Assembly (NCBI RefSeq): GCF_029911635.1
Contig: NZ_JARYTI010000004.1
Coordinates: forward strand, 1 to 64,000
Origin: Sphingomonas sp. AR_OL41
GTDB taxonomy: Bacteria > Pseudomonadota > Alphaproteobacteria > Sphingomonadales > Sphingomonadaceae
Direction: 5' to 3'
DNA: 64,000 nt
Shown in pieces: positions 1,791 to 57,267 of this stretch. Positions within the stretch are counted from its first letter, which is position 1. Each line of letters begins with the position of its first letter. The notes beneath the pieces are model-generated. The model saw nothing but the letters and a program-made list of their open reading frames with translations. It was not told the origin of the DNA and ran no database searches. A program made the position numbers and the translations under genes.

Positions 1791-1867
1791 GCGCCCGTAG
1801 CTCAGCTGGATAGAGCACATGCCTTCTAAGCCTGTGGTCGCTGGTTCGAATCCAGCCGGGCGCGCCA
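1791..1867 (+). tRNA. tRNA-Arg, anticodon TCT
   Basis: The acceptor strand GCGCCCG at the 5' end pairs with CGGGCGC near the 3' end, and the gene finishes with an encoded CCA. The D-arm (GCTCAGCTGGATAGAGC), anticodon loop CTTCTAA and T-loop GGTTCGAATCC are all in place, giving anticodon TCT for AGA. The anticodon stem holds one T-C mismatch. It lies between the backbone transporter gene and a stretch of small accessory genes, as expected of an integration hotspot. I saw no second copy of the tRNA 3' end in the window. Confidence 0.95.
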
Positions 1868-2094
1868 CTTGCCTGTCCGTGCACATCTGCAGTGCACCTG
1901 AGACACACAACGATGCACCGCGAGGACTAGATATTGCCATGCAGATCGATCGGCGTCTGAACGAGCGCACTCGGCAACTCGAACGCTGAATCGCGAATCC
2001 ACTAAGTGCCTTCATCAGCATAAGCGTTCAACGGCCGAATGTGGCGGAAAACTGCCATTGAGCGGAGCGCCGCATCCGACTACCGTTTGTCGTC

Positions 2095-36989: not shown

Positions 36990-38042
36990 ATGATTGGGAT
37001 TGATCTGTTCGCCGGGGCGGGCGGAATGTCGCTGGGTGCCGAATGGGCCGGCGTGACCACGAAGGTTGCGGTGGAAACGCACCATGCCCCTTTCGACACA
37101 TACCGCATCAACCATCCTGACTGCATGGTGCTGCAGATGGGTGTTGAGCATCTGCGGAACCTAAGCGCGCCGTTCCCTTCTGAAGACCTAGTTGTCTTTG
37201 GTGGTCCTCCCTGCCAGGGCTTCTCTACATCGAACCAGCGAACGCGGACTGCCGAGAACAAGAAGAATTGGATGTTCCAAGCGTTCGTGGCGTTCGTGAA
37301 GCGCACCAAGCCAGCATGGGTGGTCTTCGAGAACGTCCGTGGCATCCTCGAAACCGAAGGAGGCCTGTTCGCCAAGCAGATACGAAAAGACATCGAGAAA
37401 CTGGGCTACCGTTGCGAGCAAGGATTGTTGAACGCAGCCGACTTCGGCGTCCCGCAAGCCCGCAACCGCTTCTTCATCGTCGGCCGGCTTGAGGCCGCAC
37501 CACCCTTGCTGCCCGCCGGCTCGGTCCCCAAAGTTTCGGTCCAGGATGCCCTGCAGGATCTCCCCGTTCTGGAAAACGGTGCCAGCATTGACGTGCTTGG
37601 CTACTCCTCGGACGCGGCCAGCGACTACGCCAAGCGCATGCGTGGTGACCTTGATCGGTGTTCTGGGCATCTAGTGTCGCGCAATGCCGATCCGATTGTC
37701 GAACGCTATCCTTTCATCCCGCAAGGCGGGAATTGGGAAAATATTCCGGTCGAAATGATGGGGAGTTATAGGGACCGGACGCGGTGCCATACTGGAATAT
37801 ACCGGCGGCTCGATTCGGCCCGACCATCAGTAGTGATCGGGAACTTCAGAAAGAACATGCTGATCCATCCCCACGAACATCGCGGCTTGTCAGTCAGGGA
37901 AGCTGCGCGCCTTCAGTCATTCCCGGACGAATTCGTCTTCAAGGGGAGCATTGGCTTGCAGCAGCAGCAGGTCGGCAATGCCGTGCCGCCGATACTCGCT
38001 CAAGCGGTCTTCGAAACCATAGTCGCCGCGCACCGCTCATAG
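36990..38042 (+). CDS. DNA (cytosine-5-)-methyltransferase
   Basis: 350 residues with the full C5-MTase motif order: GIDLFAGAGGMSLGAEWAG (I, SAM site), VVFGGPPCQGFS with the catalytic Cys at residue 75 (IV), VVFENVRGIL near 113 (VI), AADFGVPQARNRFFIVG (VIII), a short target-recognition region, then LSVREAARLQSFPD (IX) and QQVGNAVPP (X). It modifies cytosine in a sequence I cannot infer. It is the last gene of the coupled operon begun by the HD protein. No restriction endonuclease gene is adjacent; just downstream (38046-38250) is only a short non-coding or remnant stretch. Confidence 0.93.
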   Translation: MIGIDLFAGAGGMSLGAEWAGVTTKVAVETHHAPFDTYRINHPDCMVLQMGVEHLRNLSAPFPSEDLVVFGGPPCQGFSTSNQRTRTAENKKNWMFQAFVAFVKRTKPAWVVFENVRGILETEGGLFAKQIRKDIEKLGYRCEQGLLNAADFGVPQARNRFFIVGRLEAAPPLLPAGSVPKVSVQDALQDLPVLENGASIDVLGYSSDAASDYAKRMRGDLDRCSGHLVSRNADPIVERYPFIPQGGNWENIPVEMMGSYRDRTRCHTGIYRRLDSARPSVVIGNFRKNMLIHPHEHRGLSVREAARLQSFPDEFVFKGSIGLQQQQVGNAVPPILAQAVFETIVAAHRS

Positions 38043-39437: not shown

Positions 39438-42400
39438 TCAGGTCTTCTTGGCGGTGCGAGCCGCGGCCCGTCGCCGCTGCAACGACACCACATCGCTCAC
39501 GTCGATCGACGCGACGATCGGCTGGGGACCGGTGCAGGAATCCTCCCGGATCCCTCTCGCAACTCCATGAAGATGTTCGAGCACGTCGGCGAAGGGCACA
39601 GGTGGCCTGTCCGGGATCAGCCGCCAGCCTTCCGATCGGGCATTCTGATAGACGAGCAGCAAGATGCCGTGCCGCGTCGACGCGTGACGCAGATACTGTC
39701 CGCAAAGCTGCGTTTCGAGCGCCGCCTCCATCTGCGCGACCGTAAGCCCGTCCACGATCTTGATCTCGATCGGAAGTTCGACACCGCTGTGTCGGCTGGT
39801 CAAAGCGATGTCGGGTTCCTTCTCTCCGGCATAGTGAGTCTCGCGCTGCACCGTGTAGGCTTCCCCCTTCATGGCCTCGAGCTGGATGCCCATCCACCGC
39901 TGCACCGCCCCTTCGTCGACAAGCCCCTGCAGCGTATCGCCTTGCGCATATTTCCCGTCGATCAGGTCGTGCTGGATCCGCTCGAGCCGGCGGCGCGCGA
40001 CAAGCTGCAGGTCCGCCGTCGTGGTCGGCGCGCGGTCGAACGACTGCTCGAACGTCTTCACGTCCGCCGGTTGCCATTCAACAAGCACCGCATCGGCTTC
40101 CGCATGCCGCCGCGTCCATATCCGGAGGTGCCTGGGTTCAATCGGGAAATCGGGGACATCAGAAAGTCGCAGAAGCGCCGCATGAGTCGCCTCGCCGGGC
40201 GTATTCCGCAACAGGTCGAAGATCATGTTGCGGGCGTCCTGGGCGTCGTCGCGCAATTCGGGCGAGTAGACCACGAGATCGGCACGCACGGTGTCCTCGC
40301 TCGGCTTCACGCCTTCGAACGCGATGATCAGCAACTGCTCCAGGCGTTTGACCGACAAGGACTTCGGTGGTCTCACCGCGCGGTTCAGCCGTCCGCCGAA
40401 AAGCCGGGGGAGCAGGACGCAGCACAAATCGGCCTGTCCTCGACCGTCCAGCGTCTCCATCTTAGCACGTAGCGCATCGACCGCCGTGTTACCCTCCAAG
40501 GCGAAGAGAAGGAGCAGGTAGTAAGCCGCCGCGACGGGATCCGCGGACGTCTGCGCACGCTCGCTCGCAAGATCGGCCAGCCCCGGCACCTTGATCGGCA
40601 GTGCATGCAAAAGAGCCGAGACAATCTTCTCGAGCGAGACCACTTGTAGATCAGGATGGTCCCGCAGGTGCTCGACGAGGTCGGCGACGATCAGTCGGCC
40701 GAACGCGGGATCGGCATACTCCAGGCGATCGAGCATCCCATGTCCCGCCGGATCGGTGCGCGAAAGCTGGGCATTGACCGCCTTGAGCAGCACCTCGTGC
40801 ACCACTGCGGGATATGCCTCGGCCAGCAGCGTCAGATAATCCGGAAACCCATTGAGCTCGACGATGGCAAGGCGTGCCGCCTGAAGCGCGCGATCAGCGC
40901 CGATCCGTGAGGCCCACCCCTGCACCGTCCCAGCCGCCAGGGCGGTCCCGGTCATCGCCATGATGTCGAAGTTGCTCACGCTCCGCCGTTCGGCGGTCTC
41001 CTCGACCGGCCCAACCGGCTGGTGCGCGTCTGCGAAAGCGATGAGCGCATCGCCAAACCGGCGCGTAAGCTCCTCGCCGAAGATCGGCCGCACGGCGTCC
41101 AGATTGTCGATCGCGTAGCGGTCGCGCGACTGCGTGCGCCAGGTCAGGAACTGCCAGAGATGGAAAAGCCGGGTGTCGACGGTCTCGGCGGTCTGGGCGG
41201 AGAGACGGTCGAAGACGGTCGGATCGTCCCGCAGGGTCGCGATGAGGTTGACCCAGCTGTCATCCCGTGCCGCGCCCTGCTCGTCGTTGCGCTTCCGCAG
41301 CGCCTCGAGGTCGGCCATCTGCTGGCGGATTACCGGCGGATCTTCCTGCGGAAGCAGCCAGGCTCCCAATTGCTCGGCGAGCGCAGCGTCGTCGGCCGCC
41401 GCCCCTACGAGCCGCTTCAGCACCTCCGGCCGCTGTCCGCTCTGACGCCACCACGAATGCGCGGTCCTTAGGGCGGTGAGGCGTTCGCGCGCGTCCGCGC
41501 GGCCGACGATATCGGCGATCAGCCATTCCAGGTCGGCGTCCTCGATCATGACCGGCCAACCGAAATACTGGATCGACCATATGTTTATGTCGTCGGGATC
41601 CGGCACGAACGGGTGCGTGCGCAGCCGCTCGACCGTCCGCCAGAACGATGTCCGTCGCCGTCCCGGCGATGTGCTAAAGTGTTTCCCGAGCGATCGCGCC
41701 GCGTCGTCGCCCGAGAAGCGCTCGCTCTCCCGCAGCAGCAGGTTCAGGTCGGTGACGACGTCTGGGATCGCGTCGGGAAAATGGTCCAGCAGGCGCGTCG
41801 CGCCGATCGCGGCGATCTTGGCGAAAGCGTCGCGGAACGGATGCTCTTGATGATCGCCGGTCAGCTCACCGAAGCGCGCGAGCAGGCCCTCCAGGAACGC
41901 CTGCAGGTCGGCTGCTGTCTGAAAGCCGTCGACGATCTCGGCGTCGAGCGGCAGCACGCTGACATGCCCGCCATCGTCCTTGACACCCACCTGGTCGATC
42001 AGCGTGACGAACTCGGCGACCGAGATGTATTGCGGGAAAAGCGCCTCGAGCCCATCCATCACAACGGAGCGGGTGAGCGCCGAACTATTGTCGACGACGT
42101 GCCGGGCGTAGCGTCTCAGGTCGTCCAGGTTGCCGATCCGGGTCAGCGCCCGCCCCGCCAGAAGTTGGGTCAGCTCGTCCGCCGTCGGGTCGAAAGCGAC
42201 CGCGCCAACGATCGGGAGACCGCCCTGCTGCCTACCGACCCAGATCAGCCGAAGGACGAGGTGCTGCGCTTCGACGCTATCCCCGGCCTGTGCCCACCAA
42301 TCGGCGAAATGAGCGTCAAGCTCGGGAGCAGCGAAGCGACGAAGACCCTCATCGGCGAACCACAGCTTCTCGTGGTCGATGTCATCGACCTGCGCCAGTG

Positions 42401-43781
42401 CAGCCGTGAAGGCCTTGAACCGCGTTGTCATCGGCAACGATCCGGGATCCCCATGACGCAACAGCGCGAAGGGATCGCGTGAGATCAGCTCCTCGGCGAT
42501 CGCCGTGTTGGTCCCCGCGAGCCAGGCAGCGCTCTCGACCATGTCCGGGCGAACCAGGCGATAGCCGTAGAGATCGACGAACAGCAGATCGTGGACGGTC
42601 TGCAACGGACAGCCCGCGTCAAGCATCCGCGCGTGCCACCGTGCGGTCAGATAGCATCGCAACGTGCCCTTGTTGTCGCTATGCAGGCGGGCACGGCCGA
42701 GCGTCGCCGGATCGAACACCGGTCGGCCCAGTAGCCGAAGCCGATGTGCGTCAGGCCACTCCGGAAGAATCGCATCGAGCGGCACCGACTTCTCGGGCGG
42801 CGTCATATCGAGACCGGCGGCGGGCACGCGCACGGTGTCCTTGCCACACAGCAGAAAGGCGGCACCGATGCGGTTCAACGCCTTTCCCGCCGTCTCGACA
42901 TCAAGCGGATCGGCACGGCGGCGGCGAACGTCGGGATCGATCAGACGAACCCTTATGCTCGCCTCGATCATCTCGCGTAGCGTTCCCAGCCGACGCTGAT
43001 CGCGCCAGTATTCCACGATCCAGCCGAGATCGAGCGGCCGCACCGCGAATTGCCACAGATCCCCGTCGTCGATCGCCTGCAGTAGCGCATCGGCGTCCGC
43101 GACGCCGGATCCGTCGGCGAACCTCCTGACCTGCGATCTCGTTAGAGGCTCCATCAGCAGAACCTCGATGGCCTCCGCCACGGCAGGCTTGTCGTCACGG
43201 TCCTTGCGATGCAGCGTTGCGCGCACCTCCTCGCCGAAGTTGGGCGGCAGCGGCGGCGGCGGTTCCGGAAGCGAAAGCCACTTCACCATGGCCTCGCTGT
43301 CTGCCGTCTTGTCCCAGTCGGTGAACCTGCCCGAGATGTAGAGGTGCACCCTCTCCTCGTGACCCACAATCGCATCCGCGAGATGTCGCACGGCGGTGTC
43401 GAAGTGGTGGCCCTGGTCCTTCGCCTCGTCAACGGAATCGACGAAAAGCCAGCACGGCGCCGCGCCGTCCGCCTTCCACGAGTCGAACCGCCTGCGATCC
43501 GCTGGAACGAACGCCGCTGGCAGTCCGGACATCGCGACATCGCGCACGGTCGTCGCGAAGGCGAACGCGCCCGTCGCCCGGATCGTGGCGCAGGTGCGCT
43601 CGAATTCGGCCGACTTGCCGCTTCCGGCCTCGGCGAGAACGACCACGCGGCGCTTCTCCAGCAACCCCGGCCAGCCAGGGTCGCGGGTGACCGAACGGTC
43701 GAAAAGGCCATCGAATTGCCGCCCCTCCTCATCGGTGGCCGGCCGGAATCGGCGCTGGAGGTCTACATGGCTTGCCGACAT
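39438..43781 (-). CDS. Very large NTPase with a C-terminal PD-(D/E)xK-like nuclease motif
   Basis: 1447 residues. The N-terminal STAND/NACHT-like NTPase has Walker A VVLAEAGSGKSAEFE near 47-60 and Walker B CWLFVDSVDEAKD near 110-122. About 1000 helical residues follow (repeat-like alpha scaffold, no clear TPR/LRR consensus). The C-terminus has EPDIALTSRH...ELPIEIKIVDG, giving D1324, E1339 and K1341, and a following helix, the pattern of a restriction-type nuclease. NTPase sensor plus nuclease effector is the logic of Avs-like antiphage proteins, but the domain order is reversed from the usual Avs. The ATG at 43781 was preferred to a GTG 13 codons upstream. Confidence 0.72.
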   Translation of the reverse strand: MSASHVDLQRRFRPATDEEGRQFDGLFDRSVTRDPGWPGLLEKRRVVVLAEAGSGKSAEFERTCATIRATGAFAFATTVRDVAMSGLPAAFVPADRRRFDSWKADGAAPCWLFVDSVDEAKDQGHHFDTAVRHLADAIVGHEERVHLYISGRFTDWDKTADSEAMVKWLSLPEPPPPLPPNFGEEVRATLHRKDRDDKPAVAEAIEVLLMEPLTRSQVRRFADGSGVADADALLQAIDDGDLWQFAVRPLDLGWIVEYWRDQRRLGTLREMIEASIRVRLIDPDVRRRRADPLDVETAGKALNRIGAAFLLCGKDTVRVPAAGLDMTPPEKSVPLDAILPEWPDAHRLRLLGRPVFDPATLGRARLHSDNKGTLRCYLTARWHARMLDAGCPLQTVHDLLFVDLYGYRLVRPDMVESAAWLAGTNTAIAEELISRDPFALLRHGDPGSLPMTTRFKAFTAALAQVDDIDHEKLWFADEGLRRFAAPELDAHFADWWAQAGDSVEAQHLVLRLIWVGRQQGGLPIVGAVAFDPTADELTQLLAGRALTRIGNLDDLRRYARHVVDNSSALTRSVVMDGLEALFPQYISVAEFVTLIDQVGVKDDGGHVSVLPLDAEIVDGFQTAADLQAFLEGLLARFGELTGDHQEHPFRDAFAKIAAIGATRLLDHFPDAIPDVVTDLNLLLRESERFSGDDAARSLGKHFSTSPGRRRTSFWRTVERLRTHPFVPDPDDINIWSIQYFGWPVMIEDADLEWLIADIVGRADARERLTALRTAHSWWRQSGQRPEVLKRLVGAAADDAALAEQLGAWLLPQEDPPVIRQQMADLEALRKRNDEQGAARDDSWVNLIATLRDDPTVFDRLSAQTAETVDTRLFHLWQFLTWRTQSRDRYAIDNLDAVRPIFGEELTRRFGDALIAFADAHQPVGPVEETAERRSVSNFDIMAMTGTALAAGTVQGWASRIGADRALQAARLAIVELNGFPDYLTLLAEAYPAVVHEVLLKAVNAQLSRTDPAGHGMLDRLEYADPAFGRLIVADLVEHLRDHPDLQVVSLEKIVSALLHALPIKVPGLADLASERAQTSADPVAAAYYLLLLFALEGNTAVDALRAKMETLDGRGQADLCCVLLPRLFGGRLNRAVRPPKSLSVKRLEQLLIIAFEGVKPSEDTVRADLVVYSPELRDDAQDARNMIFDLLRNTPGEATHAALLRLSDVPDFPIEPRHLRIWTRRHAEADAVLVEWQPADVKTFEQSFDRAPTTTADLQLVARRRLERIQHDLIDGKYAQGDTLQGLVDEGAVQRWMGIQLEAMKGEAYTVQRETHYAGEKEPDIALTSRHSGVELPIEIKIVDGLTVAQMEAALETQLCGQYLRHASTRHGILLLVYQNARSEGWRLIPDRPPVPFADVLEHLHGVARGIREDSCTGPQPIVASIDVSDVVSLQRRRAAARTAKKT

Positions 43782-44109
43782 TGAAACGGTATAGGTCGTT
43801 ACGGAGGCGAGGGACAACACACCCGGCGTCGCGCCAAGCGCATCCCTCTTGGCCGTTCAGCTTCGCCGGACAGTCAAGGTTCGCCTCTTCCGACATACCG
43901 CTGGCAAAAGACGCAGAACGATCGGCACCGTCCATATCGACCGGAAATCCGGACGCAGCATAGCCATCGACCGACGCGCTGACCAGTTAAAGGCATTTCG
44001 GGAAGGGGAGGTGAGGATTGGGGGGATAGCATCGAGACCAGGCACCGGAGGCACCTGGATGGGAAAAATTTCCGTTCGGCGATGGTCCGGTCCAACCAAG
44101 GATTGAAGA
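43782..44109. other. Gap between the large NTPase gene and the 201-residue gene
   Basis: This is the divergent promoter region of two genes. An 85-codon open frame (43849-44106, +) ends just before the next ATG, but it has no ATG near its start and no ribosome site; I do not call it a gene. I see no strong repeat or hairpin. Confidence 0.4.
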
Positions 44110-48220: not shown

Positions 48221-49162
48221 ATGACCGACCCCGCCACCGCGGGCGCCGAAGGTGCGCCCGCGCCCATCGACCTGACCGGCGTCGACCCGATCCACTGGGC
48301 CGAGGCCCGCCGGCGCGTCGCGATCCTGCGCGATTGGTGTGCGGTAAAGCGGCACAGCCGCGCGCAATGCGTGGCGGCAGCCGTGCGCATGGGCGTCAGC
48401 GTGAAGCACTTCGAGCGGCTGGTCGTCACATGGAAGCGGTTCGGCGAGGCGCGTCGCATCAGTGGCTCCGGATCGCGTCGCGGCGAGACGCGGGCCAGCC
48501 ATGCGATGCCGGCGGCGACCAGAACAGCCATCGACGAAGCGATATCGGCACTAGGACCCGCCGCGCGATTTACCGACATCCTCGCCGAAGTCGAGCGGCG
48601 CTGCCGCGACGCGGACACCCCGCCTCCCTCATACGGCATGATCCACTATGTCCTGATGCGCACGCGCTCAGTGCAGGCACCGGGCGGCGAGAGTCAACCG
48701 TGCGAAATCCGCATCGCGCGCGTAGCATGCGTCCTTCCCGTCGCCCTCGACGGGCGGGTCGAGTTTACACCCGAACTCGTGCTCGCGGTCGGCGCGCCGG
48801 ACGGGATCATCCTGGGCCACCGGACGGCTTTCGACGGCGACGTCGTGGTCGCGGCGGCCGAGGTGATCCGCGACATTGTCGATATGGGCGGGAATACGCC
48901 TGTTTTCGTGGCGGCAAATCTCGTCGGGGCACTGCATGCCGCCACAGCGACGGATGCGGGCACGCAGATCAACGCTGCCACCACGTCGGAACTGCTGATC
49001 ACACTGCTTGGCAGCCACATCGACAGCATCCCGATCCGGCACCGCCGCGGCGCCAGAGTCCGCGCCTGGCCCGCCGAACCGCTTTGCGAGGTCGATTGGA
49101 AGATGGCCATCGAGCAGGCGGTCGCCGCACATAACGGCACGCGGCAACCCTTCAGGCGCTGA
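48221..49162 (+). CDS. Catalytically degenerate TnsB-like protein A
   Basis: 313 residues. The layout copies TnsB/Mu-type transposases: a helix-turn-helix (RHSRAQCVAAAVRMGVSVKHFERLVVTWKRFG near 43-74), a basic linker, a second HTH-like unit (FTDILAEVERRCRDADTPPPSYGMIHYVLMR), then an RNase-H-like start RIARVACVLPVALDGRVEFTPELVLAVGAPDGIILGHRT. The positions of the catalytic Asp, Asp and Glu are not preserved (for example VFVAANLVG where an LDN motif is expected), and the C-terminal beta-barrel is missing. AGGAG precedes the ATG. It converges with the next gene and their ends overlap by 11 bp. A DNA-binding, non-cutting role is inferred. Confidence 0.6.
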   Translation: MTDPATAGAEGAPAPIDLTGVDPIHWAEARRRVAILRDWCAVKRHSRAQCVAAAVRMGVSVKHFERLVVTWKRFGEARRISGSGSRRGETRASHAMPAATRTAIDEAISALGPAARFTDILAEVERRCRDADTPPPSYGMIHYVLMRTRSVQAPGGESQPCEIRIARVACVLPVALDGRVEFTPELVLAVGAPDGIILGHRTAFDGDVVVAAAEVIRDIVDMGGNTPVFVAANLVGALHAATATDAGTQINAATTSELLITLLGSHIDSIPIRHRRGARVRAWPAEPLCEVDWKMAIEQAVAAHNGTRQPFRR

Positions 49163-50393
49163 GCAGACGCAGAAATTCTAGGAGCGCCTTTGGCGCCCCT
49201 TCTGCGCCGACACCGCTCCGCCTCAGGGGCATGGTCCCGTTATATAGCTCGACCTCAGCGGCGACACGCTCAGCGGCCTCGCGATCGTCGTAGACCTCCT
49301 CACCGTCCGCCAGCGGCGGCACCTCCCTCACCCATGTAGGGCGGAGCATGACGCGCCCTACCCGCTCGCCCACATACCTGCGGATCTGCGACCCGAACCG
49401 GCGTTCGTTCGTGACCGGCGCGAACTCGAAGTGCCCGGCAAGCGCCTTGTGCCGCGCGAACAGCGCGTCGCATGCCGCGCGGTCGTTGCCGACCACGAGG
49501 TCGGCGCGTCGGGTGGCGGGCGCCCATGGCAGTCTGGTCCCTGCGCTGCGCGCGATCCAGTCCGCTGTGGAGGCGGCGGCGAGCGCGTAACCCTCCACGC
49601 TGGCGTCCACCGATCCCAGGCCATGGCCCATGATGCGCAAAGTCCCACGATCGATCACGACGAAAAGGGCATAGGGGATGCCGTCGGGCCGACGCATCGA
49701 AACGGGACAGCAGTCCAGCACGATCGATTCACCCAGCAGCTTCGTATCCGCGACGCGGTTCTGCTCGCGCACGATGACAGCCCGCACTATGTTCGGCGAC
49801 GGGATGGCGAGCGTCTTACCCTCCCCGTCCTGCTCCGGCAGCTCCTCCCGCACCATGGCCTCCAGCTTGCGGCGTATCCACTCGACCGTGCGGTCCTCAT
49901 CGCTCGACGCGACCGCCTTCACCACGTGCTTCTGGAGGAGCGCGTTGACCACGGGATGGATGCGCGTGGAACGGTCGGGCGACGCGGCCGCATAGGCTCC
50001 GACGGCAAGCAGGCCCGGCCGTTTTCTCCAGGCCGACGCCATCTGATAGAAACGCTTGGTCGTCACGTCGGCGATCACGGCGGCCTCGTCGGCGGACAGC
50101 CCCCCACGTTCCCCCCACCATCTGTTCATCAAGGCGACACGGTCCGCCGCCTTCACGCGCAGGCTCGGCGACAACGTGGCCCACCCCCGCGCCTCATCGT
50201 CGTAGGGTTCGCGTCCGAGCAGCGTCGGGAGGTCAGACACCACAGTCGAATCGGTGGCAGGTCCGTCATCCGATTCGCCCCTCGACCTCGATCTTCCACT
50301 CCGATTCGCCGCGCTGGTGAAGCCCGTTTCGCTCCCGACAACGCCTGCCCCAGGCTGTTTTCGTGCTGAATCGTCACTAGCGTTTTTGGCCAT
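49152..50393 (-). CDS. Catalytically degenerate TnsB-like protein B
   Basis: 413 residues. After a low-complexity N-terminus comes an HTH (GLSADEAAVIADVTTKRFYQMASAWRKRPG), a PSPNIVRAVIVREQNRVADTKLLGES linker as in TnsB, then an RNase-H-like fold: IVLDCCPV and ALFVVIDRGTLRIMGHG (first strands), LVVGNDRA at the second-Asp position, and SQIRRYVGERVGRVM where TnsB has its catalytic Glu. The first two Asp residues may persist, but the Glu position looks like Arg. A C-terminal part resembles the TnsB barrel (EVYDDREAAERVAAEVELYNG). It diverges from tnsA across an inverted repeat. The GTG at 50423 is an alternative start. Confidence 0.6.
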   Translation of the reverse strand: MAKNASDDSARKQPGAGVVGSETGFTSAANRSGRSRSRGESDDGPATDSTVVSDLPTLLGREPYDDEARGWATLSPSLRVKAADRVALMNRWWGERGGLSADEAAVIADVTTKRFYQMASAWRKRPGLLAVGAYAAASPDRSTRIHPVVNALLQKHVVKAVASSDEDRTVEWIRRKLEAMVREELPEQDGEGKTLAIPSPNIVRAVIVREQNRVADTKLLGESIVLDCCPVSMRRPDGIPYALFVVIDRGTLRIMGHGLGSVDASVEGYALAAASTADWIARSAGTRLPWAPATRRADLVVGNDRAACDALFARHKALAGHFEFAPVTNERRFGSQIRRYVGERVGRVMLRPTWVREVPPLADGEEVYDDREAAERVAAEVELYNGTMPLRRSGVGAEGAPKALLEFLRLLSA

Positions 50394-50424: not shown

Positions 50425-50497
50425 CATCAACGCGAAATGCGGAAAAACTTGTTGCATTGCTCCGCTGGTGCACTATGTTCCGCATCTCTCGTTGATG
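50425..50497. promoter_or_regulatory. Long inverted repeat in the divergent tns promoter region
   Basis: Arms at 50425-50444 (CATCAACGCGAAATGCGGAA) and 50478-50497 match at 18 of 20 positions as inverted copies, separated by 33 bp. Between them lies a plausible promoter for tnsA (TTGCAT near 50452, TATGTT near 50474). In Tn7, TnsB binds repeats of about this size at the end next to tnsA and represses the operon, so this may be an operator and part of a transposon end. No third copy was found. Confidence 0.6.
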
Positions 50498-50507
50498 GAG
50501 AAATGCA

Positions 50508-50663
50508 ATGGAATATGCAGAACTGAATTGCGTGGTAGCGGAAGCCGTGAAGAAGGCAATGGCCGCGCACGACCGGCGGACGGCCAACCGCCAGCCGCCG
50601 ATGCGGTGGCGCCGCAGGGCCACCCGCACACCATGGACGAATCGTCCGGGAATGATGCGTTGA
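50508..50663 (+). CDS. 51-residue leader ORF overlapping the start of tnsA
   Basis: It starts 11 bp after the inverted repeat with GGAG upstream, so it holds the best ribosome site of the operon. The peptide is MEYAELNCVVAEAVKKAM followed by a basic, Arg-rich tail. Its stop lies 28 bp inside tnsA, which has a poor ribosome site of its own, suggesting translational coupling. Either a small functional protein or a coupling leader; no homologue recognised. Confidence 0.45.
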   Translation: MEYAELNCVVAEAVKKAMAAHDRRTANRQPPMRWRRRATRTPWTNRPGMMR

Positions 50664-51535
50664 GGCGCTCTCCGCCCATGCAGGTCGGGCCGACCGCCAG
50701 TGACGTGGCGGACGAAGCCACCAATCTTCTGCGCATCCCGATGTCGCAGCAGGTGGTGCGCGGTGTCGCCCTGCATCGCCAGCTGCGCGATCCCACCATC
50801 CAGCCATCCCGAACCCGAGTCATTCAGCGCGACGATCCCGACATGCCCGTCGTCGGCGAGGAACTGACGAGCATGGGCGAGATGATCGTCTGCCGGGATG
50901 GCGGGTCGCTGCGCACCTTCAACGGCCGCCAGGCGCACGAGAACGGCTGGTGGCCCAGCTTCAAGCGCCGCCGGCTCCAGCACTGGCAGGGCTCCGCCCA
51001 GCGCTACGCGATGATGGCGGCGGAGTGCGACTTCAACGTGAACTGGGCACAGACCGAGGCGCGCCGCTTCCACTTCATCATCGGGAGCACGTGGTATGAA
51101 TACACCTGCGACCTCGAGATCGACATGGTCGACGCGCCAACCGAGATCGTGGAGATCAAGCGCGACGACCGGGCGCTCGAGGACCCCGACTACCGCCTGA
51201 AGCTCGCCGGCGTAGACGAGATCTGCCGCCGCATCGGCATGCGCTTCCGCATCGTCATGGCCGACGAGATCTTCACCGGCCGCCAGCACCGCGACAACGT
51301 GGAGTTGTTCGCATCTCGGCGCTTCGCCGCGGTAGGCCGCGACCATCTCCACCGCCTGGAGACCCACGCCATCGTCCGTGGGCGGATGTCGACCTACGGC
51401 GAGATGGCGGTGGTGCTCGACCCGCGTTGTCCCGCCCGGGGCAAGGCTCTGCTGCAGGCCCTGACCGTCCGTCGCCGGGTCGAGATCGACCTTACGAAGT
51501 TCCTCACCGACCGCACCCCCGTCACCATCCACTGA
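50633..51535 (+). CDS. tnsA: TnsA-like transposase endonuclease subunit
   Basis: 300 residues. The restriction-type catalytic core shows the strand YTCDLEIDMVD (D160 and D164) followed by TEIVEIKRDD (E174, K176), the D...ExK pattern of TnsA. The usual flanking features are there: GMRFRIVMADEIF in the N-domain's last strand and a C-terminal winged helix (EMAVVLDPRCPARGKALLQALTVRRRVEIDL). TnsA cuts the 5' ends at the transposon tips so that movement is cut-and-paste. The ATG at 50633 was chosen because the frame upstream overlaps the leader ORF; an ATG at 50495 is possible. Next gene starts 16 bp on. Confidence 0.88.
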   Translation: MDESSGNDALRRSPPMQVGPTASDVADEATNLLRIPMSQQVVRGVALHRQLRDPTIQPSRTRVIQRDDPDMPVVGEELTSMGEMIVCRDGGSLRTFNGRQAHENGWWPSFKRRRLQHWQGSAQRYAMMAAECDFNVNWAQTEARRFHFIIGSTWYEYTCDLEIDMVDAPTEIVEIKRDDRALEDPDYRLKLAGVDEICRRIGMRFRIVMADEIFTGRQHRDNVELFASRRFAAVGRDHLHRLETHAIVRGRMSTYGEMAVVLDPRCPARGKALLQALTVRRRVEIDLTKFLTDRTPVTIH

Positions 51536-51551
51536 GCAAAGGAGAATACCT

Positions 51552-51764
51552 GTGAAGACGAACTACCTGAAGCACCGCAGCGCCCGTGGCGCCTTCGAAC
51601 GTCCCGGCGGCAAGACCGCCCGCCCGCCCAGCGTGAAGGCGGCGCCGGGGTTCGTCGCCGACGCCGGGCCCATGGACTTCGTCCTCGCCGACGGCCGCCG
51701 CCCGCGCGTCACGCTGCTCATGGACACGGCGTCCCGCGCGGTCGTCGGCTGGCAGATGAGCTGA
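51552..51764 (+). CDS. 70-residue RNase-H-like fragment between tnsA and tnsB
   Basis: It starts at a GTG with AGGAG 7 bp upstream, so it is probably translated. After a basic Arg/Lys-rich N-terminus comes GPMDFVLADGRRPRVTLLMDTASRAVVGW, which follows the first two strands of a DDE transposase (compare D...GKPWLTVAIDVHSRAILAW in tnsB at residue 284 onwards). It stops there, so only one or two of the three catalytic acids can be present. It may be a decayed second transposase or a small regulator. A 157-bp gap separates it from tnsB. Confidence 0.55.
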   Translation: MKTNYLKHRSARGAFERPGGKTARPPSVKAAPGFVADAGPMDFVLADGRRPRVTLLMDTASRAVVGWQMS

Positions 51765-51782: not shown

Positions 51783-51912
51783 CCATGCGGAGGGCGGCCA
51801 CGATCCTGAAATAGCAACGCACGTCCGCGTTGCCATCCGGGTCGCTGGCCCGGCCTCGACCGAGACCGTGCCCGCGGTCGGCGGAACGCCGACGCACGCT
51901 CTCTCCGCATGG
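51783..51912. repeat. 10-bp inverted repeat flanking the segment before tnsB
   Basis: CCATGCGGAG (51783-51792) and CTCCGCATGG (51903-51912) are perfect inverted copies bounding the 130 bp ahead of the tnsB start. The core ATGCGGA is shared with both arms of the inverted repeat at 50425-50497. The second copy includes the GGAG ribosome site of tnsB, so protein binding there would affect translation or transcription of tnsB. Confidence 0.4.
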
Positions 51913-51921
51913 AGAAGCCAA

Positions 51922-54237
51922 GTGACCCACCTGCCCAGCTACAACTACCCCGCCGGCACCGTCATCGAGATCGACGGCACGCCATACGACCCGCCGAAGG
52001 AAACGATGCCCGGCCGCCTGTTCCTTATGGATCGACGGACTGGCCAGCCCTTCGTCGTCCCCGACGGCGAGGGCGGGACCATCCTCCCCTCCCCGGCCGA
52101 CTACGACCGGCTGATCACCGACGAGCGGCTCGAGGTGAAGATGCCTCCGAACGTCATCGCCTCGCGCGCGCTTTCCGCCGCGGCCGAATGGGACGTGTCG
52201 GACTGCGAAGCAATCGACCCCGACGTCCGCAAGAACCTCGCTCAGTGCGAAGTGCTGGACGAAAACGGCGTCAAGAACGGCAATTACGCCGTCACCGCCG
52301 GCCTCGCGAAGCACTGGACCCCGGACCTCGTCGAGAAATACGGCCCGCACGACAACCCCCACACCGTCAAGCGCTGGCGCTCGGAGCGCGGCAAGGCCGG
52401 CAAGCGCACCCACAAGGACATGGTTCGGCTCAACGGCCGCGCCGAGCGCGACACCAACCTGTCCGAACCCGCGATGGAGATCCGGCAGAAGCACGCGATT
52501 GACGGCGCCGGCAACTACGGCGCCGTGAAGGCCGCATACGCGATCGCGGCAACCGAACTGATCGCCGTCAATGAGGGACGTCACGACGGCTACCCGCAGC
52601 CGGAGAAGCCCTACCCGATCTTCACCTATGAGACGTTCCGGCGGGCCTGCGTCGCCCTGTCGGGCTCCGAGACGACGGAGACGCGCGACGGCGAGAAGAT
52701 GGTGGAGGCCAGGATGCGAGGCGCGGGCAAGCCGCTGACCGCCAGTCGCATCCTCGAAAAGGTCATCATCGACCACACGCCGCTGTCGTGCTTCCTGGTC
52801 GTCGATCCAGAACGCGACATCGTCGCGGGCAAGCCGTGGCTGACCGTGGCGATCGACGTCCACAGCCGGGCCATCCTTGCCTGGATCATCACGTTCCGCC
52901 CGCCCAGCTACTGGACGGTGTGCGAGATCCTGCGCCGCATGAACTTGCCGAAGCGCCCGCCGCCCAACTTCGCACTGCGCTACCCGTTCCTCTCCCGCAT
53001 CTGCGGCAAGCCGGGCGAGCTGATACTCGATAATGCCTCCGAGTTCACCGGGCACGGCCTCGAGGACGCGGCAAAGTGCGGCTCCTTCTCGGTCCTGTTC
53101 TGCCCGATCGAGCAGCCGCGCTACCGCGCCATCGTCGAGCGCTCGCTCGGCACCTTCGAGCGCAAGATGCTCGAGCACTTCCCAGGCGCGTCGATGACGA
53201 TCGAATATAACCGGCTGACCGGGCACGACGGGGAGGACCTGGCCGTCGCCACGCCCAACGAACTGGAGGCGCTCGCGAACCACGCCATCGCGGAATACCA
53301 CACCGAACCGCACGACGGCCTTCAGGGCCGCCAGCCCGCGCTGGTCTTCCAGAAGTCGGCAAACAAGCACGGTATCGACGTGATGCACGACGTCCGACGC
53401 TTCCAGCTCGAGACCTTCGAGGTGCGGCAGAACGTCAAGGTCACCAAGAGCGGCGTGCGCGCGTTCGGCCTGCGGTTCCACTGCCCGGTCGGCGTGCCCC
53501 GGCTGATCGACAACAACCTGCGCTACGAGCCCCGGCGCCAGCCCCGGGCCGACGCTACGATCCTCACCAAGATCAAGTTCGATCCGGAGAACATCGCCAC
53601 GGTCCACGCCTGGGACCGGACGACTAACTCCTACGTCGAGCTGAAGTGTGCGGACGAGACCTACTCTGACGGCATGCCTCTGTGGTTCCACGAAGAGCTG
53701 CTCGAGATCGCCAGGAACGAGGCGACCGCACCGGCGAAGGACACGGCGAAGAAGCGGGCATACGTTAAGAGGGAGGCCAAGCCGACTTCGACCATCCGCC
53801 CCCTGTCCGAGCTCGACGATACGGAGGGCACCGGCGTCGTCGGCTTCAACACCGAGGCCGAGCGCATGGAGGCCCGGGCCCGGAGGATCACCGCGATCCG
53901 GGCGATCGCCCCGGGCGCCCGCCACCGCGAGCGGCTCCTGGTCGCCCGCCTCTACGAGACGCCGCGCCTGCGGCAGATCACGGGCAACATCGTCAACATC
54001 GACATCGACTACGCCGAGGCCGTCACGACCGACGACTTCATCGCCCACGACGTCTCGGCGCTGACCGCGCTCGACGCCGAGATCGAGGCACCGCGCAGCG
54101 AGGTCGAACCGCGCCGCAAGGAGCGCACCGGACGCGGCGACCGCCGCGACGCCGGCAGGACCCGCCCCGGCGTCGACCAGCAGGACGACGCCCCCGCTCC
54201 CTCCACGCGCCGCCCCAGCTCGCGCCTCGCCGGCTGA
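51922..54237 (+). CDS. tnsB: TnsB-like DDE transposase
   Basis: 771 residues from a GTG with GGAG 7 bp upstream; the frame is open further up but lacks a ribosome site. After N-terminal HTH units (HTVKRWRSERGKAGKRTHKD region) comes the RNase-H catalytic domain: IIDHTPL (D284), a GKPWLTVAIDVHSRAILAW strand pair, LILDNASEF (D370), and RAIVERSLGTFERKM (E406). D370 and E406 are 35 residues apart, the classic DD35E. The C-terminal Mu-type barrel and a disordered tail that would contact TnsC follow. TnsB cuts and joins the 3' ends. The charged, Arg/Asp-rich last 60 residues fit the TnsC-binding tail. Confidence 0.93.
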   Translation: MTHLPSYNYPAGTVIEIDGTPYDPPKETMPGRLFLMDRRTGQPFVVPDGEGGTILPSPADYDRLITDERLEVKMPPNVIASRALSAAAEWDVSDCEAIDPDVRKNLAQCEVLDENGVKNGNYAVTAGLAKHWTPDLVEKYGPHDNPHTVKRWRSERGKAGKRTHKDMVRLNGRAERDTNLSEPAMEIRQKHAIDGAGNYGAVKAAYAIAATELIAVNEGRHDGYPQPEKPYPIFTYETFRRACVALSGSETTETRDGEKMVEARMRGAGKPLTASRILEKVIIDHTPLSCFLVVDPERDIVAGKPWLTVAIDVHSRAILAWIITFRPPSYWTVCEILRRMNLPKRPPPNFALRYPFLSRICGKPGELILDNASEFTGHGLEDAAKCGSFSVLFCPIEQPRYRAIVERSLGTFERKMLEHFPGASMTIEYNRLTGHDGEDLAVATPNELEALANHAIAEYHTEPHDGLQGRQPALVFQKSANKHGIDVMHDVRRFQLETFEVRQNVKVTKSGVRAFGLRFHCPVGVPRLIDNNLRYEPRRQPRADATILTKIKFDPENIATVHAWDRTTNSYVELKCADETYSDGMPLWFHEELLEIARNEATAPAKDTAKKRAYVKREAKPTSTIRPLSELDDTEGTGVVGFNTEAERMEARARRITAIRAIAPGARHRERLLVARLYETPRLRQITGNIVNIDIDYAEAVTTDDFIAHDVSALTALDAEIEAPRSEVEPRRKERTGRGDRRDAGRTRPGVDQQDDAPAPSTRRPSSRLAG

Positions 54238-54286: not shown

Positions 54287-55354
54287 ATGAACAACTTCAC
54301 CGAAGACTTCCGCGACGATCCCGACCACGACGACGACACGCCGCTGGGCAGCCGGCTCGTCGCCCGGCGGCGCAACGTCGTGCGCGACATCCGCGTCGAC
54401 TGGGCACCGCAACGCGAGTTCATCGTCGCGCTCGACGAACTCCTCTATTCCGCCATCGAGCGGCCGGGCGGCCCGCAGGCGGGCGTCCGGCTCCTGGCGC
54501 CCAGCTACTCGGGCAAGAGCACCGTCGCACGCAGGTATGTGAGCGAGGTCCTCGAACGTGGCGAACACCGCACGGACACCATCCCGGTCGCCTACGCCAA
54601 GCTAGATCCGGAAGGCACGGTCGGATCGCTCGCGACCGACATCCTAAAGGCGCTCGGCGCCAAGCGGCCGGAGAGCCTGACGCCCATCAAGCGCTGGGAG
54701 CGCGCGCGCCGCACGATGCGCGACAAGCAGGTCCGCCTCTTCCTGTTCGACGAGTTCCAGCGCGCCGGACGCCGCCCGACCGTCAGCCCCGTCATCGCGG
54801 GAAAACTGCTCGACGTGATGGATGACGAGGAGGGATCGTGCGCGTGCGCGTTCATCGGCAAAGCGGCCGCAAAGGGCATTTTCAAGACCGCCGGCGACCT
54901 CGGCAACCGCCTCGACGCGCCAGTCCACATGCAGCCGCTCGTGTGGGCGAGCAAGGCCGACAGGGAGGCGTTCACGAAGTTCGCCGACGCCTTCGACGAG
55001 GCGCTGGTCGCGGGTGGCGCGACCGTGGTGAAGTCCGGCCTCGCCGACCCGCCGGTCGCCGAGCTCCTGATGGAGGCGTCCAACGGCCTGATCGGTCAGT
55101 TCAGCCGGATCATCGAGACAGCGGTCATGAACATCACCCGCGCAGGGCACACGGGCATCGCGCGGGGCGACCTCGCGATCGCCGTCGACGAATGGTCGAT
55201 CGGCAACGAACGCATCGACTACAACCCGTTCGACCGGAAGGTCACCCGCGGCGGCACGGCCTCCACCGCCGACAGCGCACGCGACGACAGCGGCGATCCC
55301 GACGGCATCGACGACGGCGACATCGATGACGACGGCGAGGAAGCGGGGGCATGA
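54287..55354 (+). CDS. tnsC: TnsC/TniB-like AAA ATPase
   Basis: 355 residues. Walker A LLAPSYSGKSTVARRY near 69-84 and Walker B VRLFLFDEFQRAG near 148-160, followed by CACAFIGKAAAKG (sensor-1 region) and a C-terminal helical part with an acidic, low-complexity tail (DGIDDGDIDDDGEEAGA). TnsC polymerises on target DNA, receives the TniQ/TnsD signal and activates TnsAB. GGAGACGAAC precedes the ATG, and the stop overlaps the tniQ start (ATGA). Length and motif spacing are normal for the TniB type. Confidence 0.92.
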   Translation: MNNFTEDFRDDPDHDDDTPLGSRLVARRRNVVRDIRVDWAPQREFIVALDELLYSAIERPGGPQAGVRLLAPSYSGKSTVARRYVSEVLERGEHRTDTIPVAYAKLDPEGTVGSLATDILKALGAKRPESLTPIKRWERARRTMRDKQVRLFLFDEFQRAGRRPTVSPVIAGKLLDVMDDEEGSCACAFIGKAAAKGIFKTAGDLGNRLDAPVHMQPLVWASKADREAFTKFADAFDEALVAGGATVVKSGLADPPVAELLMEASNGLIGQFSRIIETAVMNITRAGHTGIARGDLAIAVDEWSIGNERIDYNPFDRKVTRGGTASTADSARDDSGDPDGIDDGDIDDDGEEAGA

Positions 55355-57267
55355 GCGACTTCACCTTCATTCCCGGAGAGTCCTTCAACGGCGCAATCGC
55401 GCGCTGGGCGGCCGAGAACGACGTCGAACGGATGATCGACGTCACGCGCGCGGCTGGCCTGGTCCATCCGCACCGGCAGACGGCCGGACGCGCCGAACCC
55501 GAGGGCATCGCGGCGATCTCGGCGGAGATGGACGTCTGCATCGGCGCGCTCGCGGTCCTCGCCACGCCGCTCGACGGACCCGACCTCGGCCAGCACTCGC
55601 GCCGCCTGCTCAACGGCGTGTCAGTCCCATCGGCGCTGCTCGAGACGCGCCGCCGCCGGATCGCGCCGGCGGCGTTCGCGCCGCCTCCAGTCGACGAACT
55701 GGCGGCTCCCCCGCCGCACCACCGCGCCCTTTGGGACTTCCGGCTGCTGCCCGCCTGCACCGAGACGTGGCAATACCTGGTGCACCGTTGCGGCAACGAC
55801 GATTGCGGCGACCTCGGCTGGCATCATACGCCCGGCATCGACCTGTGCGAACACTGCATGGGCGAACTCGCGGACACGCCCGCCGGTGACGTCGAGCCCG
55901 AACTGCGGGAATGCCTGGCCCACGTCGCTGGCCTCGTCCACCACGACCCAGCGCGCCGCGCCGCGTCGCTTGCGCTGCTGTCTCCCGCGATCGCCGACAT
56001 GGGCGCCCCGGTGGCGATAGATTTGGTCTACCGCCTGCTGCCGGTGATCACCCCGGGCCTGCCCTCCCCGCCCCATTCGCTGGCCAACGCGGATCCCCGC
56101 ACGCTCGCCATCGCCGTCGTCGCCGCGTGGAAATTCGCGACGGACTGGCCGCACGGCGCCCTCGCACATATCGGCAACCTGGTCTCCAGACGCGCCACCC
56201 GCCATTCCGACGGAAACCGCGGCGAGACCATGCGCTTCCTCGACATGGGACGACTGCTGGGTCTCCGTCCGGAGGTGGAGGACCTCGCGGCGGCGCTCCG
56301 GTGGGAACTCGACATCAAGGGGCCGCACGGCGCGACGCTCGAACGCGCGACGCGCACATCGAGCGAAGCCGTGCAGCTCCTGTCCGTCGGAAGCCAACTT
56401 GTCGCACGGTTCCGTCGGAGTGGAGCACTGGCGACGATCCCGGTGCTGGTCCACGGCACACTGCAGCCAAGGCTCTCGGCGGACGACCTCGAACTCGTGG
56501 CCGACGGCATCAGTCGCCGGATCGGGGTCGACACGCTCCAGTCGCGGTTCGGCATCTCGCATCACGGCGTCGAGCAGCTCGAGGCGCTCGGCCTCATTCA
56601 TCTGCTGCGCCATCCCTATTTCGAGGCGCGATACACGGCGCGGCAGGTGGACATGGACTCGGTCGTCGACCTGGAGAGGGCGCTCGCCGACGCCGCCGCG
56701 TCAGGTGATCCAGACCGTTGCACCCGCCCGCTCGTCGATGCGATGAAGGCCGTCGGCGGCAGGATGAAGCCGTGGGGCCCGGTGCTGGATGCGATACGGC
56801 TGAACCGCATCCCCGTCAGCCTGACCGACGGGAACGGCCCTCTCTCCAGCCGCCTGCTGATCGACCCCGGCTCGATTGGGCTCGTGACCGCGGCGACCTT
56901 CGTCGCGCCGACCGGCTGGGGTCGTCCGGCGGGAGCGCTGGTCACTAAGGTGGATGCGGCGGAGACGCTCAACCTCTGCCCCAAGCAGTCGACTAAGCTC
57001 CTGACCCGTTTCCCGACGGTCAGCGGGAGCCACGCCAAGTCCGTGCCCGTCGACCAACTGCTGGAAATCGCGCGCCGGCAGATCAGCAGCGTCGAGCTCG
57101 CCGCGCGCCGGGGCATCAGTCCCGCCGCGGCCTACTTCGAGGCCAGGCGCGACAAGGTGCCCTGGCTGGGCCACGCGGGGTTCTGCCGGGCGACGGCGGA
57201 ACGAACCTACCTTGCGGACGGCGGCCCGGCCCGCGGCGCTTGCGGAAAAGATGGACGCCCTGGTTGA
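55351..57267 (+). CDS. tniQ: TniQ/TnsD-like target-selection protein
   Basis: 638 residues. The N-terminal TniQ part starts FIPGESFNGAIARWAAEN and contains a zinc finger, C147-x4-C152 ... C166-x2-C169 (HRCGNDDCGDLGW, LCEHCMG). The long C-terminal portion has several helix-turn-helix-like segments, for example ISRRIGVDTLQSRFGISHHGVEQLEALGLI and ILEIARRQISSVELAARRGISPAAAYFEAR type patterns. This length fits a TnsD-like protein that recognises a fixed target, not the short TniQ that works with CRISPR effectors. The target is unknown. ATGA overlap with tnsC; no tnsE or second tniQ follows. Confidence 0.88.
   Translation: MSDFTFIPGESFNGAIARWAAENDVERMIDVTRAAGLVHPHRQTAGRAEPEGIAAISAEMDVCIGALAVLATPLDGPDLGQHSRRLLNGVSVPSALLETRRRRIAPAAFAPPPVDELAAPPPHHRALWDFRLLPACTETWQYLVHRCGNDDCGDLGWHHTPGIDLCEHCMGELADTPAGDVEPELRECLAHVAGLVHHDPARRAASLALLSPAIADMGAPVAIDLVYRLLPVITPGLPSPPHSLANADPRTLAIAVVAAWKFATDWPHGALAHIGNLVSRRATRHSDGNRGETMRFLDMGRLLGLRPEVEDLAAALRWELDIKGPHGATLERATRTSSEAVQLLSVGSQLVARFRRSGALATIPVLVHGTLQPRLSADDLELVADGISRRIGVDTLQSRFGISHHGVEQLEALGLIHLLRHPYFEARYTARQVDMDSVVDLERALADAAASGDPDRCTRPLVDAMKAVGGRMKPWGPVLDAIRLNRIPVSLTDGNGPLSSRLLIDPGSIGLVTAATFVAPTGWGRPAGALVTKVDAAETLNLCPKQSTKLLTRFPTVSGSHAKSVPVDQLLEIARRQISSVELAARRGISPAAAYFEARRDKVPWLGHAGFCRATAERTYLADGGPARGACGKDGRPG

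What the first reader, a model, noticed from the sequence alone, without database searches (positions are those of the whole stretch)
48221..50393. Two degenerate TnsB-like proteins in a convergent pair beside a Tn7-like operon
Seen: both proteins have the TnsB order of HTH, linker and RNase-H-like strands, but the catalytic residues look altered (no LDN-type second Asp in one; Arg at the Glu position in the other), while the neighbouring tnsB has an intact DD35E. They converge with an 11-bp overlap. Known: Tn7 needs one TnsB; extra inactive TnsB copies are not part of the classic set. Inferred: they may be decoy transposases that bind the ends or compete for TnsC, acting as immunity, regulation or end-pairing factors.
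Basis: partly seen in the sequence, partly recalled or inferred. Interest (0 to 1): 0.85.

Follow-up and report, generated by a model that had tools for sequence, protein, structure and literature searches.

The report
Dead transposase pair, a swappable switch
A family of large jumping DNA elements in sphingomonad bacteria carries, beside its jumping genes, a pair of relatives of the jumping enzyme that have lost most of the enzyme's cutting residues and that appear to be exchanged between elements as a unit; they likely act as a switch that controls when the element jumps.

Summary
pA (48221-49162 +) and pB (49152-50393 -) converge with an 11-bp overlap, are predicted to have the TnsB/MuA layout, and lack the DDE triad. 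They lie in a 64-kb Tn7-like transposon (1874 to 65906, 5-bp duplication) 6 bp after a tRNA-Arg gene. The arrangement is widespread in sphingomonads: 32 loci with both genes were found, each beside tnsB; of 22 assessable related tns operons in 397 genomes, 19 have both. pB keeps the first Asp (21 of 21), never the Glu (0 of 21).

New: pA and pB evolve together, tnsA/B/C/tniQ evolve together, but the two blocks are unlinked (rho -0.17 to 0.08). In the few comparable cases the attachment tRNA does not follow the pair. This argues against the pair choosing the tRNA or being tuned to its own ends or TnsC. Upstream of pB, 11 of 31 loci have significant paired 18-bp sites (control 2 of 29), 7 of them 52-57 bp apart. 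Best reading (inferred): a swappable regulatory cassette made from a dead transposase. A one-gene version lies in a Tn7 relative beside glmS in the same genome. Ten literature searches found no description.

The parts
1791..1867 (+). tRNA-Arg (TCT), attachment site of the element
   Evidence: ARAGORN; Rfam
1869..1873 (.). target-site duplication TTGCC (second copy just after 65906 of the contig, outside the window)
1874..1897 (.). cargo-side end of the transposon (20 of 24 inverted match to the end at 65906 of the contig)
   Evidence: score 30 against 24 for the best of 60 random positions
48221..49162 (+). pA: dead TnsB-like protein, 313 aa, no catalytic residue kept
49152..50393 (-). pB: dead TnsB-like protein, 413 aa, only the first catalytic Asp (D227) kept, Arg at the Glu position
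50425..50444 (.). left arm of a 20-bp inverted repeat (18 of 20) in the pB-tnsA gap, operator-like
50478..50497 (.). right arm of the inverted repeat
50468..51535 (+). tnsA-like endonuclease (likely start near 50678; longest reading from GTG 50468), divergent from pB
   Evidence: (TnsA_like_Actin E 6e-7, below its cut-off)
51868..54237 (+). tnsB transposase with intact D/D/E (likely start 51922)
54287..55354 (+). tnsC ATPase
   Evidence: Pfam TniB E 2e-12, AAA_22
55351..57267 (+). tniQ/TnsD-like protein, 638 aa, no Pfam match of its own; assigned by place and by homology to the L091 protein that matches Pfam TniQ weakly

Best explanation
pA and pB are two paralogous TnsB-type proteins that have lost the catalytic triad and that likely work as DNA-binding regulators of the tnsA-tnsB-tnsC-tniQ operon, encoded together with their own predicted binding sites as a cassette that appears to be exchanged between Tn7-like elements. 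Shown: loss of the DDE triad in both families; a constant place divergent from tnsA; inheritance of pA with pB but not with the tns genes; paired 18-bp sites in the stretch upstream of pB in a third of the loci. Predicted: the N-terminal DNA-binding domains and the dead RNase-H core (structure models). Inferred: pA and pB, probably as a complex like paired transposase subunits, occupy such sites, keep the divergent promoters silent and release them under a signal not known. Because the cassette would bring both the regulators and the sites, it could be fitted onto any tns block, which would explain why it is nearly always there but does not track one. Repression rather than activation is a guess.
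For: Constant place: pB divergent from tnsA in 32 of 32 loci, pair convergent in 30 of 32. Unlinked blocks: pA-pB rho 0.55 p 0.001; tns genes among each other rho 0.57-0.73 p 0.001; across blocks rho -0.17 to 0.08 (29-34 loci per test). Swaps: L003/L158 pair 69/83% identical but tnsA/B/C/tniQ 18-25%; L020/L021 pair 75/81% but tns 17-23%; L099/L162 the reverse (pair 34/31%, tns 62-86%). In L020/L021 a shared block reaches through the gap to about the tnsA start (by eye). Paired sites: 11 of 62 tests (31 loci, inverted and direct) reach p <= 0.05 upstream of pB, against 2 of 58 (29 loci) downstream of tniQ; 7 of the 11 are spaced 52-57 bp, 5.2% expected. Window: 20-bp inverted repeat, 18 of 20. 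Precedent: in V-K CASTs the regulators CvkR, Arc_1 and Arc_2 lie upstream of cas12k in reverse orientation, and CvkR represses cas12k and tnsB (PMC9938897, abstract and passages).
Against: No binding or expression data. 20 of 31 loci show no significant pair of sites, and the 52-57 bp range was chosen after seeing on the same sequences, so it is not an independent test. The tested stretch (420 bp) also holds the variable first codons of pB and may run into tnsA. Between the arms of the window repeat, at 50465-50474, lies a 10-mer that matches an end repeat in 9 of 10 bases, so TnsB may bind the gap too. L020, L021 and L160 share a direct pair 44 bp apart, but singly it is not significant (p 0.066 to 0.18), and L160 resembles L021 more in the tns block (54-75%) than in the pair (39-40%). 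No sigma-70-like promoter was found in the window gap. I could not show that pA or pB binds anything. A simple repressor would not obviously need two paralogues, a whole RNase-H fold or pB's invariant Asp. Unlinked inheritance would also fit a role in trans against other elements.
Confidence: 0.42

Rival explanations
1. The pair is a second target selector, as TnsE is in Tn7 or TnsF in Tn6022: TniQ sends the element to its home tRNA gene, and pA/pB bind another kind of DNA (for example incoming plasmids) and recruit the transposition proteins there.
For: Many Tn7-like elements have two target pathways, and TniQ partners are exchanged in some branches (PMC11406308, passages); TnsF is an inactivated recombinase used as selector (PMC10293859, passages). 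The pair is near-universal in the group (19 of 22) and not tied to one tns block; the home tRNA does not follow the pair, which leaves a second pathway open.
Against: A selector must hand over to TnsC or TniQ, yet the pair shows no co-evolution with tnsC (rho 0.03, 0.04) or tniQ (0.04, -0.17). Insertions away from tRNA genes were not looked for.
Confidence: 0.23
2. One reading: dead TnsB subunits that bind the element's own ends or its TnsC as decoys, immunity or end-pairing parts.
For: Homology to TnsB and the predicted DNA-binding and RNase-H domains; a 10-mer in the pB-tnsA gap resembles an end repeat; non-catalytic subunits exist in Mu and TnsB tetramers (recalled).
Against: No co-evolution with tnsB or tnsC; window and L093 share the tRNA-Arg (TCT) site and 65% TnsB but the pair at 16%; the arms of the window repeat have no near match in its ends. 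By length both proteins lack the region where TnsB has a weak Mu-transpos_C match and its tail (inferred).
Confidence: 0.16
3. Weapon against rival elements: pA/pB act in trans on ends or proteins of other Tn7-like elements that use the same tRNA genes, so they need not match their own tns block and diversify.
For: Unlinked evolution and wide divergence of the pair (about 15-30% between many loci); exchange between elements needs two elements in one cell (inference).
Against: Strong constraint between L020 and L021 (dN/dS 0.08, 0.12); no sign of a target; does not explain the fixed place divergent from tnsA.
Confidence: 0.1
4. Decaying remnants of an older transposase.
For: Lost catalytic residues; damaged extra pA copies in L003; the pair is missing or reduced in 3 of 22 related loci.
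Against: Open frames, purifying selection and conserved order across 32 loci.
Confidence: 0.02

Closest known systems
Tn7-like transposons with TniQ/TnsD-directed tRNA attachment sites (types I-B2, I-D relatives)
   Same: tnsA, tnsB, tnsC, tniQ-like gene; 5-bp duplication; insertion just downstream of tRNA genes; cargo with some defence-like genes
   Different: carry two dead TnsB-like proteins divergent from tnsA; insertion 6-13 bp after the tRNA in the resolved loci, against 30-33 nt reported for CyCAST (PMC10293859, passages)
CvkR/Arc regulators of V-K CASTs
   Same: divergent gene beside the core genes, operator in the shared gap (proposed here)
   Different: MerR or ribbon-helix-helix proteins, not derived from a transposase
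TnsF of Tn6022
   Same: a recombinase that lost catalysis and became a Tn7 accessory
   Different: tyrosine recombinase that targets comM; pA/pB are DDE-fold and do not follow the attachment tRNA in the cases compared
TniA/TnsB-type transposase of L105 (G114:C1)
   Same: closest intact relative found: pA profile E 1.8e-29 over the N-terminal domains and the core
   Different: has D, DN and E (by eye) and a longer C-terminal part

Membership tests
TnsB (Tn7-like transposase) | helix-turn-helix domains followed by an RNase-H-like core | tested here: met
TnsB (Tn7-like transposase) | catalytic D, D, E | tested here: not met
   pB Glu 0 of 21, second Asp 1 of 21; pA no row with all three
TnsB (Tn7-like transposase) | Mu-transpos_C beta-barrel and C-terminal TnsC-binding tail | tested here: inconclusive
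   Pfam PF09299 weakly in the window TnsB (E 0.0034, below its cut-off), not in pA/pB at E <= 1; the tail was not tested
Tn7-like transposon (the whole element) | tnsA, tnsB, tnsC and tniQ in one operon | tested here: met
   tnsB by solved TnsBs, tnsC by Pfam TniB; tnsA below curated cut-offs; tniQ only by homology to weak TniQ matches
Tn7-like transposon (the whole element) | 5-bp target duplication and inverted ends | tested here: met
   window 1874..65906 TTGCC; G314 and G059 by comparison of two copies; G187, G009, G996, G994 anchored on tRNA ends, G205 probable
Divergent transcriptional regulator of a Tn7-like element | gene divergent from the core genes | tested here: met
   32 of 32
Divergent transcriptional regulator of a Tn7-like element | operator-like repeats in the gap | tested here: inconclusive
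   significant in 11 of 31 loci, control 2 of 29; 20 loci without
Divergent transcriptional regulator of a Tn7-like element | binds the gap and changes core expression | not testable with these tools
   needs binding and expression assays
Target selector (TniQ/TnsD, TnsE, TnsF) | decides the attachment site | tested here: inconclusive
   for the tRNA site the few comparisons speak against it (window/L093, window/L019, L019/L093 and L155/L158 share a tRNA or tRNA family while their pairs are 16-31% alike; window and L158 have like pairs and different tRNAs). A second pathway was not tested.
Target selector (TniQ/TnsD, TnsE, TnsF) | interacts with TnsC | not testable with these tools
   only co-evolution was tested (none found)

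The most novel reading that the evidence does not exclude
A dead DDE transposase has become a plug-in targeting head: the pA/pB heteromer is a second, interchangeable target selector of Tn7-like transposons, built from the transposase fold itself, that any tns block can use to reach mobile DNA while TniQ keeps the home tRNA site.
Probability: 0.2. Interest if true: 0.9.

Novelty: new variant of a known kind. Interest (0 to 1): 0.72.

Why it matters
Tn7-like elements and their CRISPR versions are being built into gene-insertion tools, and what restrains them in nature is poorly known. A near-constant accessory made from the transposase itself, but inherited independently of it, would be a new class of Tn7 component. 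The unlinked inheritance is a directly testable clue: one cassette should work with many different tns blocks.

Tried and rejected
Pair as chooser of the tRNA site: not favoured, since in the few comparable cases the tRNA does not follow the pair. The rule 'tRNA follows the tns block' is itself imperfect: L019 uses tRNA-Arg (TCT) with an unrelated block, and window and L024 have partly similar blocks (51/42/31/30%) at different tRNAs. That the ends follow the tns block rests on one case (L155/L158 have alike ends, alike tns blocks and unlike pairs). Pair outside the element: rejected, because comparing two copies at different sites puts it between the ends; in the other loci the search looked for ends on either side by design. 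Glutamate E330 of pB as a kept catalytic residue (my reading by eye, notebook entries 2 and 5): rejected, it lies before the RRFG motif and the Glu column holds Arg. An RNA guide: Rfam found only the window tRNA in 10 sources. The 816-bp block shared by L020 and L021 beyond pA, first taken for noncoding, reads by eye like a secreted nuclease with an excalibur-like end. Plasmid records and viral contigs (pB alignment only): no relative; phage records were not searched. Wider taxa: of 385 genomes of the class, strong pB matches were in two genomes of the own family (G000 two places, G091); two weak matches in G645 are TniA-type transposases, one in G465 (E 8e-4) was not fetched.

End search: 27 loci extended, 25 with anchors (L099 and L017 had none). 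Supported: window, L021, L022, L019, L093, L155; L158 equals its null maximum of 29, which may include the true end; L024 (score 20, null maximum 22) is called probable from its longer inner match. Of the other 17, 8 had a tRNA at a testable place without supported ends and 9 had none. Because most ends were sought at tRNA ends, the tRNA rule is circular for them; independent are G314/G059 and the window, whose ends ranked first without the tRNA. L155/L158 termini are not TGT/TAT, so their exact ends may be off by some bases.

Of the TnsB places below the 24 with E <= 1e-60, five were fetched (L104-L108), none with the pair, plus the own genome's C66 (L117), none. Of the 41 genomes, 13 were fetched (14 stretches; 12 genomes held the pair, G916 a TniA-type transposase); the rest were known already or matched ORFs of transposase size and were not fetched. 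Supplements and subscription papers were not seen.

Full report

Active sites. With L105 as reference, pB keeps the first Asp in 21 of 21 proteins, has Asp at the second site in 1 of 21 and Glu in 0 of 21 (Arg, Lys, Val, Leu, Ile, Met). pA keeps the first Asp in 5 of 20, the second in 2 of 19 and the Glu in 1 of 19 rows that have a letter there (23 rows in all). The TnsBs beside them keep all three in 11 of 11 aligned. So the pair cannot be ordinary DDE enzymes. The invariant first Asp of pB is unexplained.

The element. Within the 104 kb of the contig examined, the best pair of inverted ends with a 5-bp duplication is 1874 to 65906 (TTGCC), 64 kb, and the first end lies 6 bp after tRNA-Arg (TCT). 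Comparing two nearly identical elements at different sites (G314, G059) gave ends and duplications independently, both beside tRNA-Cys. Anchored on tRNA 3' ends, matching ends were found for window, L019, L093 (all tRNA-Arg TCT), L021, L022 (Cys), L155 (Lys CTT), L158 (Lys TTT) and probably L024 (Gln), 8 of 25 loci examined. Because most were sought at tRNA ends, only the window and G314/G059 are independent support for the tRNA rule. The pair lies between the tns operon and the cargo.

How general. pB homologues were found in 11 of 397 genomes of the family with a narrow profile and in two named Sphingomonas records. With TnsB as bait, 24 places in the same 397 genomes match with E <= 1e-60; two end at a contig edge; of the other 22, 19 have both pA and pB, one (L097) a pA-like gene only, one (L094) transposase-like ORFs in the place, and one (L095) neither, with two RepB/ParB-type genes there. 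A search of 396 genomes of the order led to 12 more loci with the pair (11 not held before), each beside tnsB. In all, 32 loci have both genes, two of them nearly identical (L021, L022); pB is divergent from tnsA in 32 of 32, and pA and pB converge in 30 of 32 (L099 and L162 have them in tandem, L162 with three pA copies; in L017 another gene lies between them). In 385 genomes of the class nothing strong was found outside the family.

A one-gene form. The same genome has a second Tn7 relative beside glmS with TnsD, TnsC, TnsB and TnsA matches (Pfam; its ends were not sought). Divergent from its tnsA lies one 480-aa protein of the same kind (hhalign to pB Prob 99.7 E 2e-26, to pA 99.7 E 2e-25). 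In its family (17 aligned) the first Asp is invariant, while by eye the second is missing and the Glu column holds other residues, mostly Lys or Ala. Only this one locus of it was seen among 396 genomes; its other relatives came from the protein search without context.

Two blocks that do not travel together. Over 29-34 loci per test, amino-acid identities of tnsA, tnsB, tnsC and tniQ correlate with each other (rho 0.57-0.73, Mantel p 0.001), as do pA and pB (0.55, p 0.001), but no comparison of pA or pB with a tns gene does (-0.17 to 0.08, p 0.087-0.997) (with 10 loci and another alignment method across blocks -0.10 to 0.36, p >= 0.061). Examples: L003/L158 share the pair (69/83%) and not the tns block (18-25%); L099/L162 share the tns block (62-86%) and not the pair (34/31%). 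Many values lie near a floor of about 20% identity, which limits the test, but the same floor does not hide the within-block correlations.

What the attachment site follows. Window and L093 both sit at tRNA-Arg (TCT) and share tnsA/B/C/tniQ at 62/65/54/39% but the pair at 16/16%; L155 and L158 sit at tRNA-Lys genes with different anticodons and share 62/67/71/40% but the pair at 28/31%, and their ends are alike; window and L158 have similar pairs (45/53%) but different tRNAs, ends and tns blocks. Against a simple rule, L019 uses tRNA-Arg (TCT) with an unrelated tns block and an unrelated pair, and window and L024 differ in tRNA with partly similar blocks (51/42/31/30%). These are few cases. 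They argue that the pair does not choose the home site, in line with published tRNA-directed TniQ/TnsD proteins (PMC11406308, passages).

Sites in the promoter gap. In the 420 bp upstream of the conserved part of pB, the best 18-bp inverted or direct repeat is significant (p <= 0.05 against shuffles) in 11 of 62 tests (11 of 31 loci), against 2 of 58 (29 loci) downstream of tniQ; 7 of the 11 are 52-57 bp apart, 5.2% expected. That range was chosen, which used the same sequences with other shuffles and gave 11 of 64. The window has arms 50425-50444 and 50478-50497 (18 of 20). L020 and L021, with different tns blocks and like pairs, share a direct pair 44 bp apart inside a stretch that is conserved as a whole, and L160 has a variant at the same spacing; singly these are not significant (p 0.066-0.18). 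A 10-mer between the window arms resembles an end repeat (9 of 10). No sigma-70-like promoter was found in the window gap.

Reading. A gene pair that is nearly always there, always divergent from tnsA in the loci seen, has lost catalysis, is predicted to have kept DNA-binding domains, lies behind paired sites in a third of the loci, and is indifferent to which TnsB, TnsC or TniQ it accompanies fits a regulatory cassette best. Divergent regulators of other kinds are known for V-K CASTs (PMC9938897, abstract and passages). A second target selector is the main rival. Shown are anatomy, distribution, residue loss and unlinked inheritance; binding and regulation are inferred.

Literature. Ten searches of the open library gave no paper that, in the listings and the passages read, describes dead TnsB paralogues in Tn7-like elements. 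Seen in passages: PMC10293859, PMC11406308, PMC8649781, PMC8190619, PMC9938897; the rest only as listings. Subscription papers and supplements were not covered, so 'not described' means not found there.

Noticed in passing
window 51835-51914 and L003 8840-8919: An 81-bp segment 94% identical between two otherwise diverged elements, between tnsA and tnsB in the window and between pB and tnsA in L003; single copy in the own genome; no unusual RNA fold (z -0.6).
   Followed up: partly
window 51552-51764: Small ORF between tnsA and tnsB whose end (VTLLMDTASRAVVGWQ) looks by eye like the middle strands of a TnsB RNase-H core; L003 has a similar end before the same 81-bp segment.
   Followed up: no
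L021, L022, L154, L160: tnsB is split into two overlapping ORFs in these loci; whether both halves work together or the gene is broken is open.
   Followed up: no
L116 (G000:C57:28000-47999): The Tn7 relative beside glmS in the same genome also has a second TniQ/TnsD-like gene (13596-14975).
   Followed up: partly
L095 5805-7654: In the tns locus without the pair, two RepB/ParB-type genes lie upstream of tnsA.
   Followed up: no
window 36990-38042 and 39438-43820: Cargo of the element includes a C5 cytosine methyltransferase and a protein of about 1450 aa; L020 and L021 cargo has SIR2_2 and VRR_NUC proteins, defence-like.
   Followed up: no
L162 6226-11738: Three pA-like genes and one pB in tandem on one strand, a locally expanded version.
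   Followed up: no
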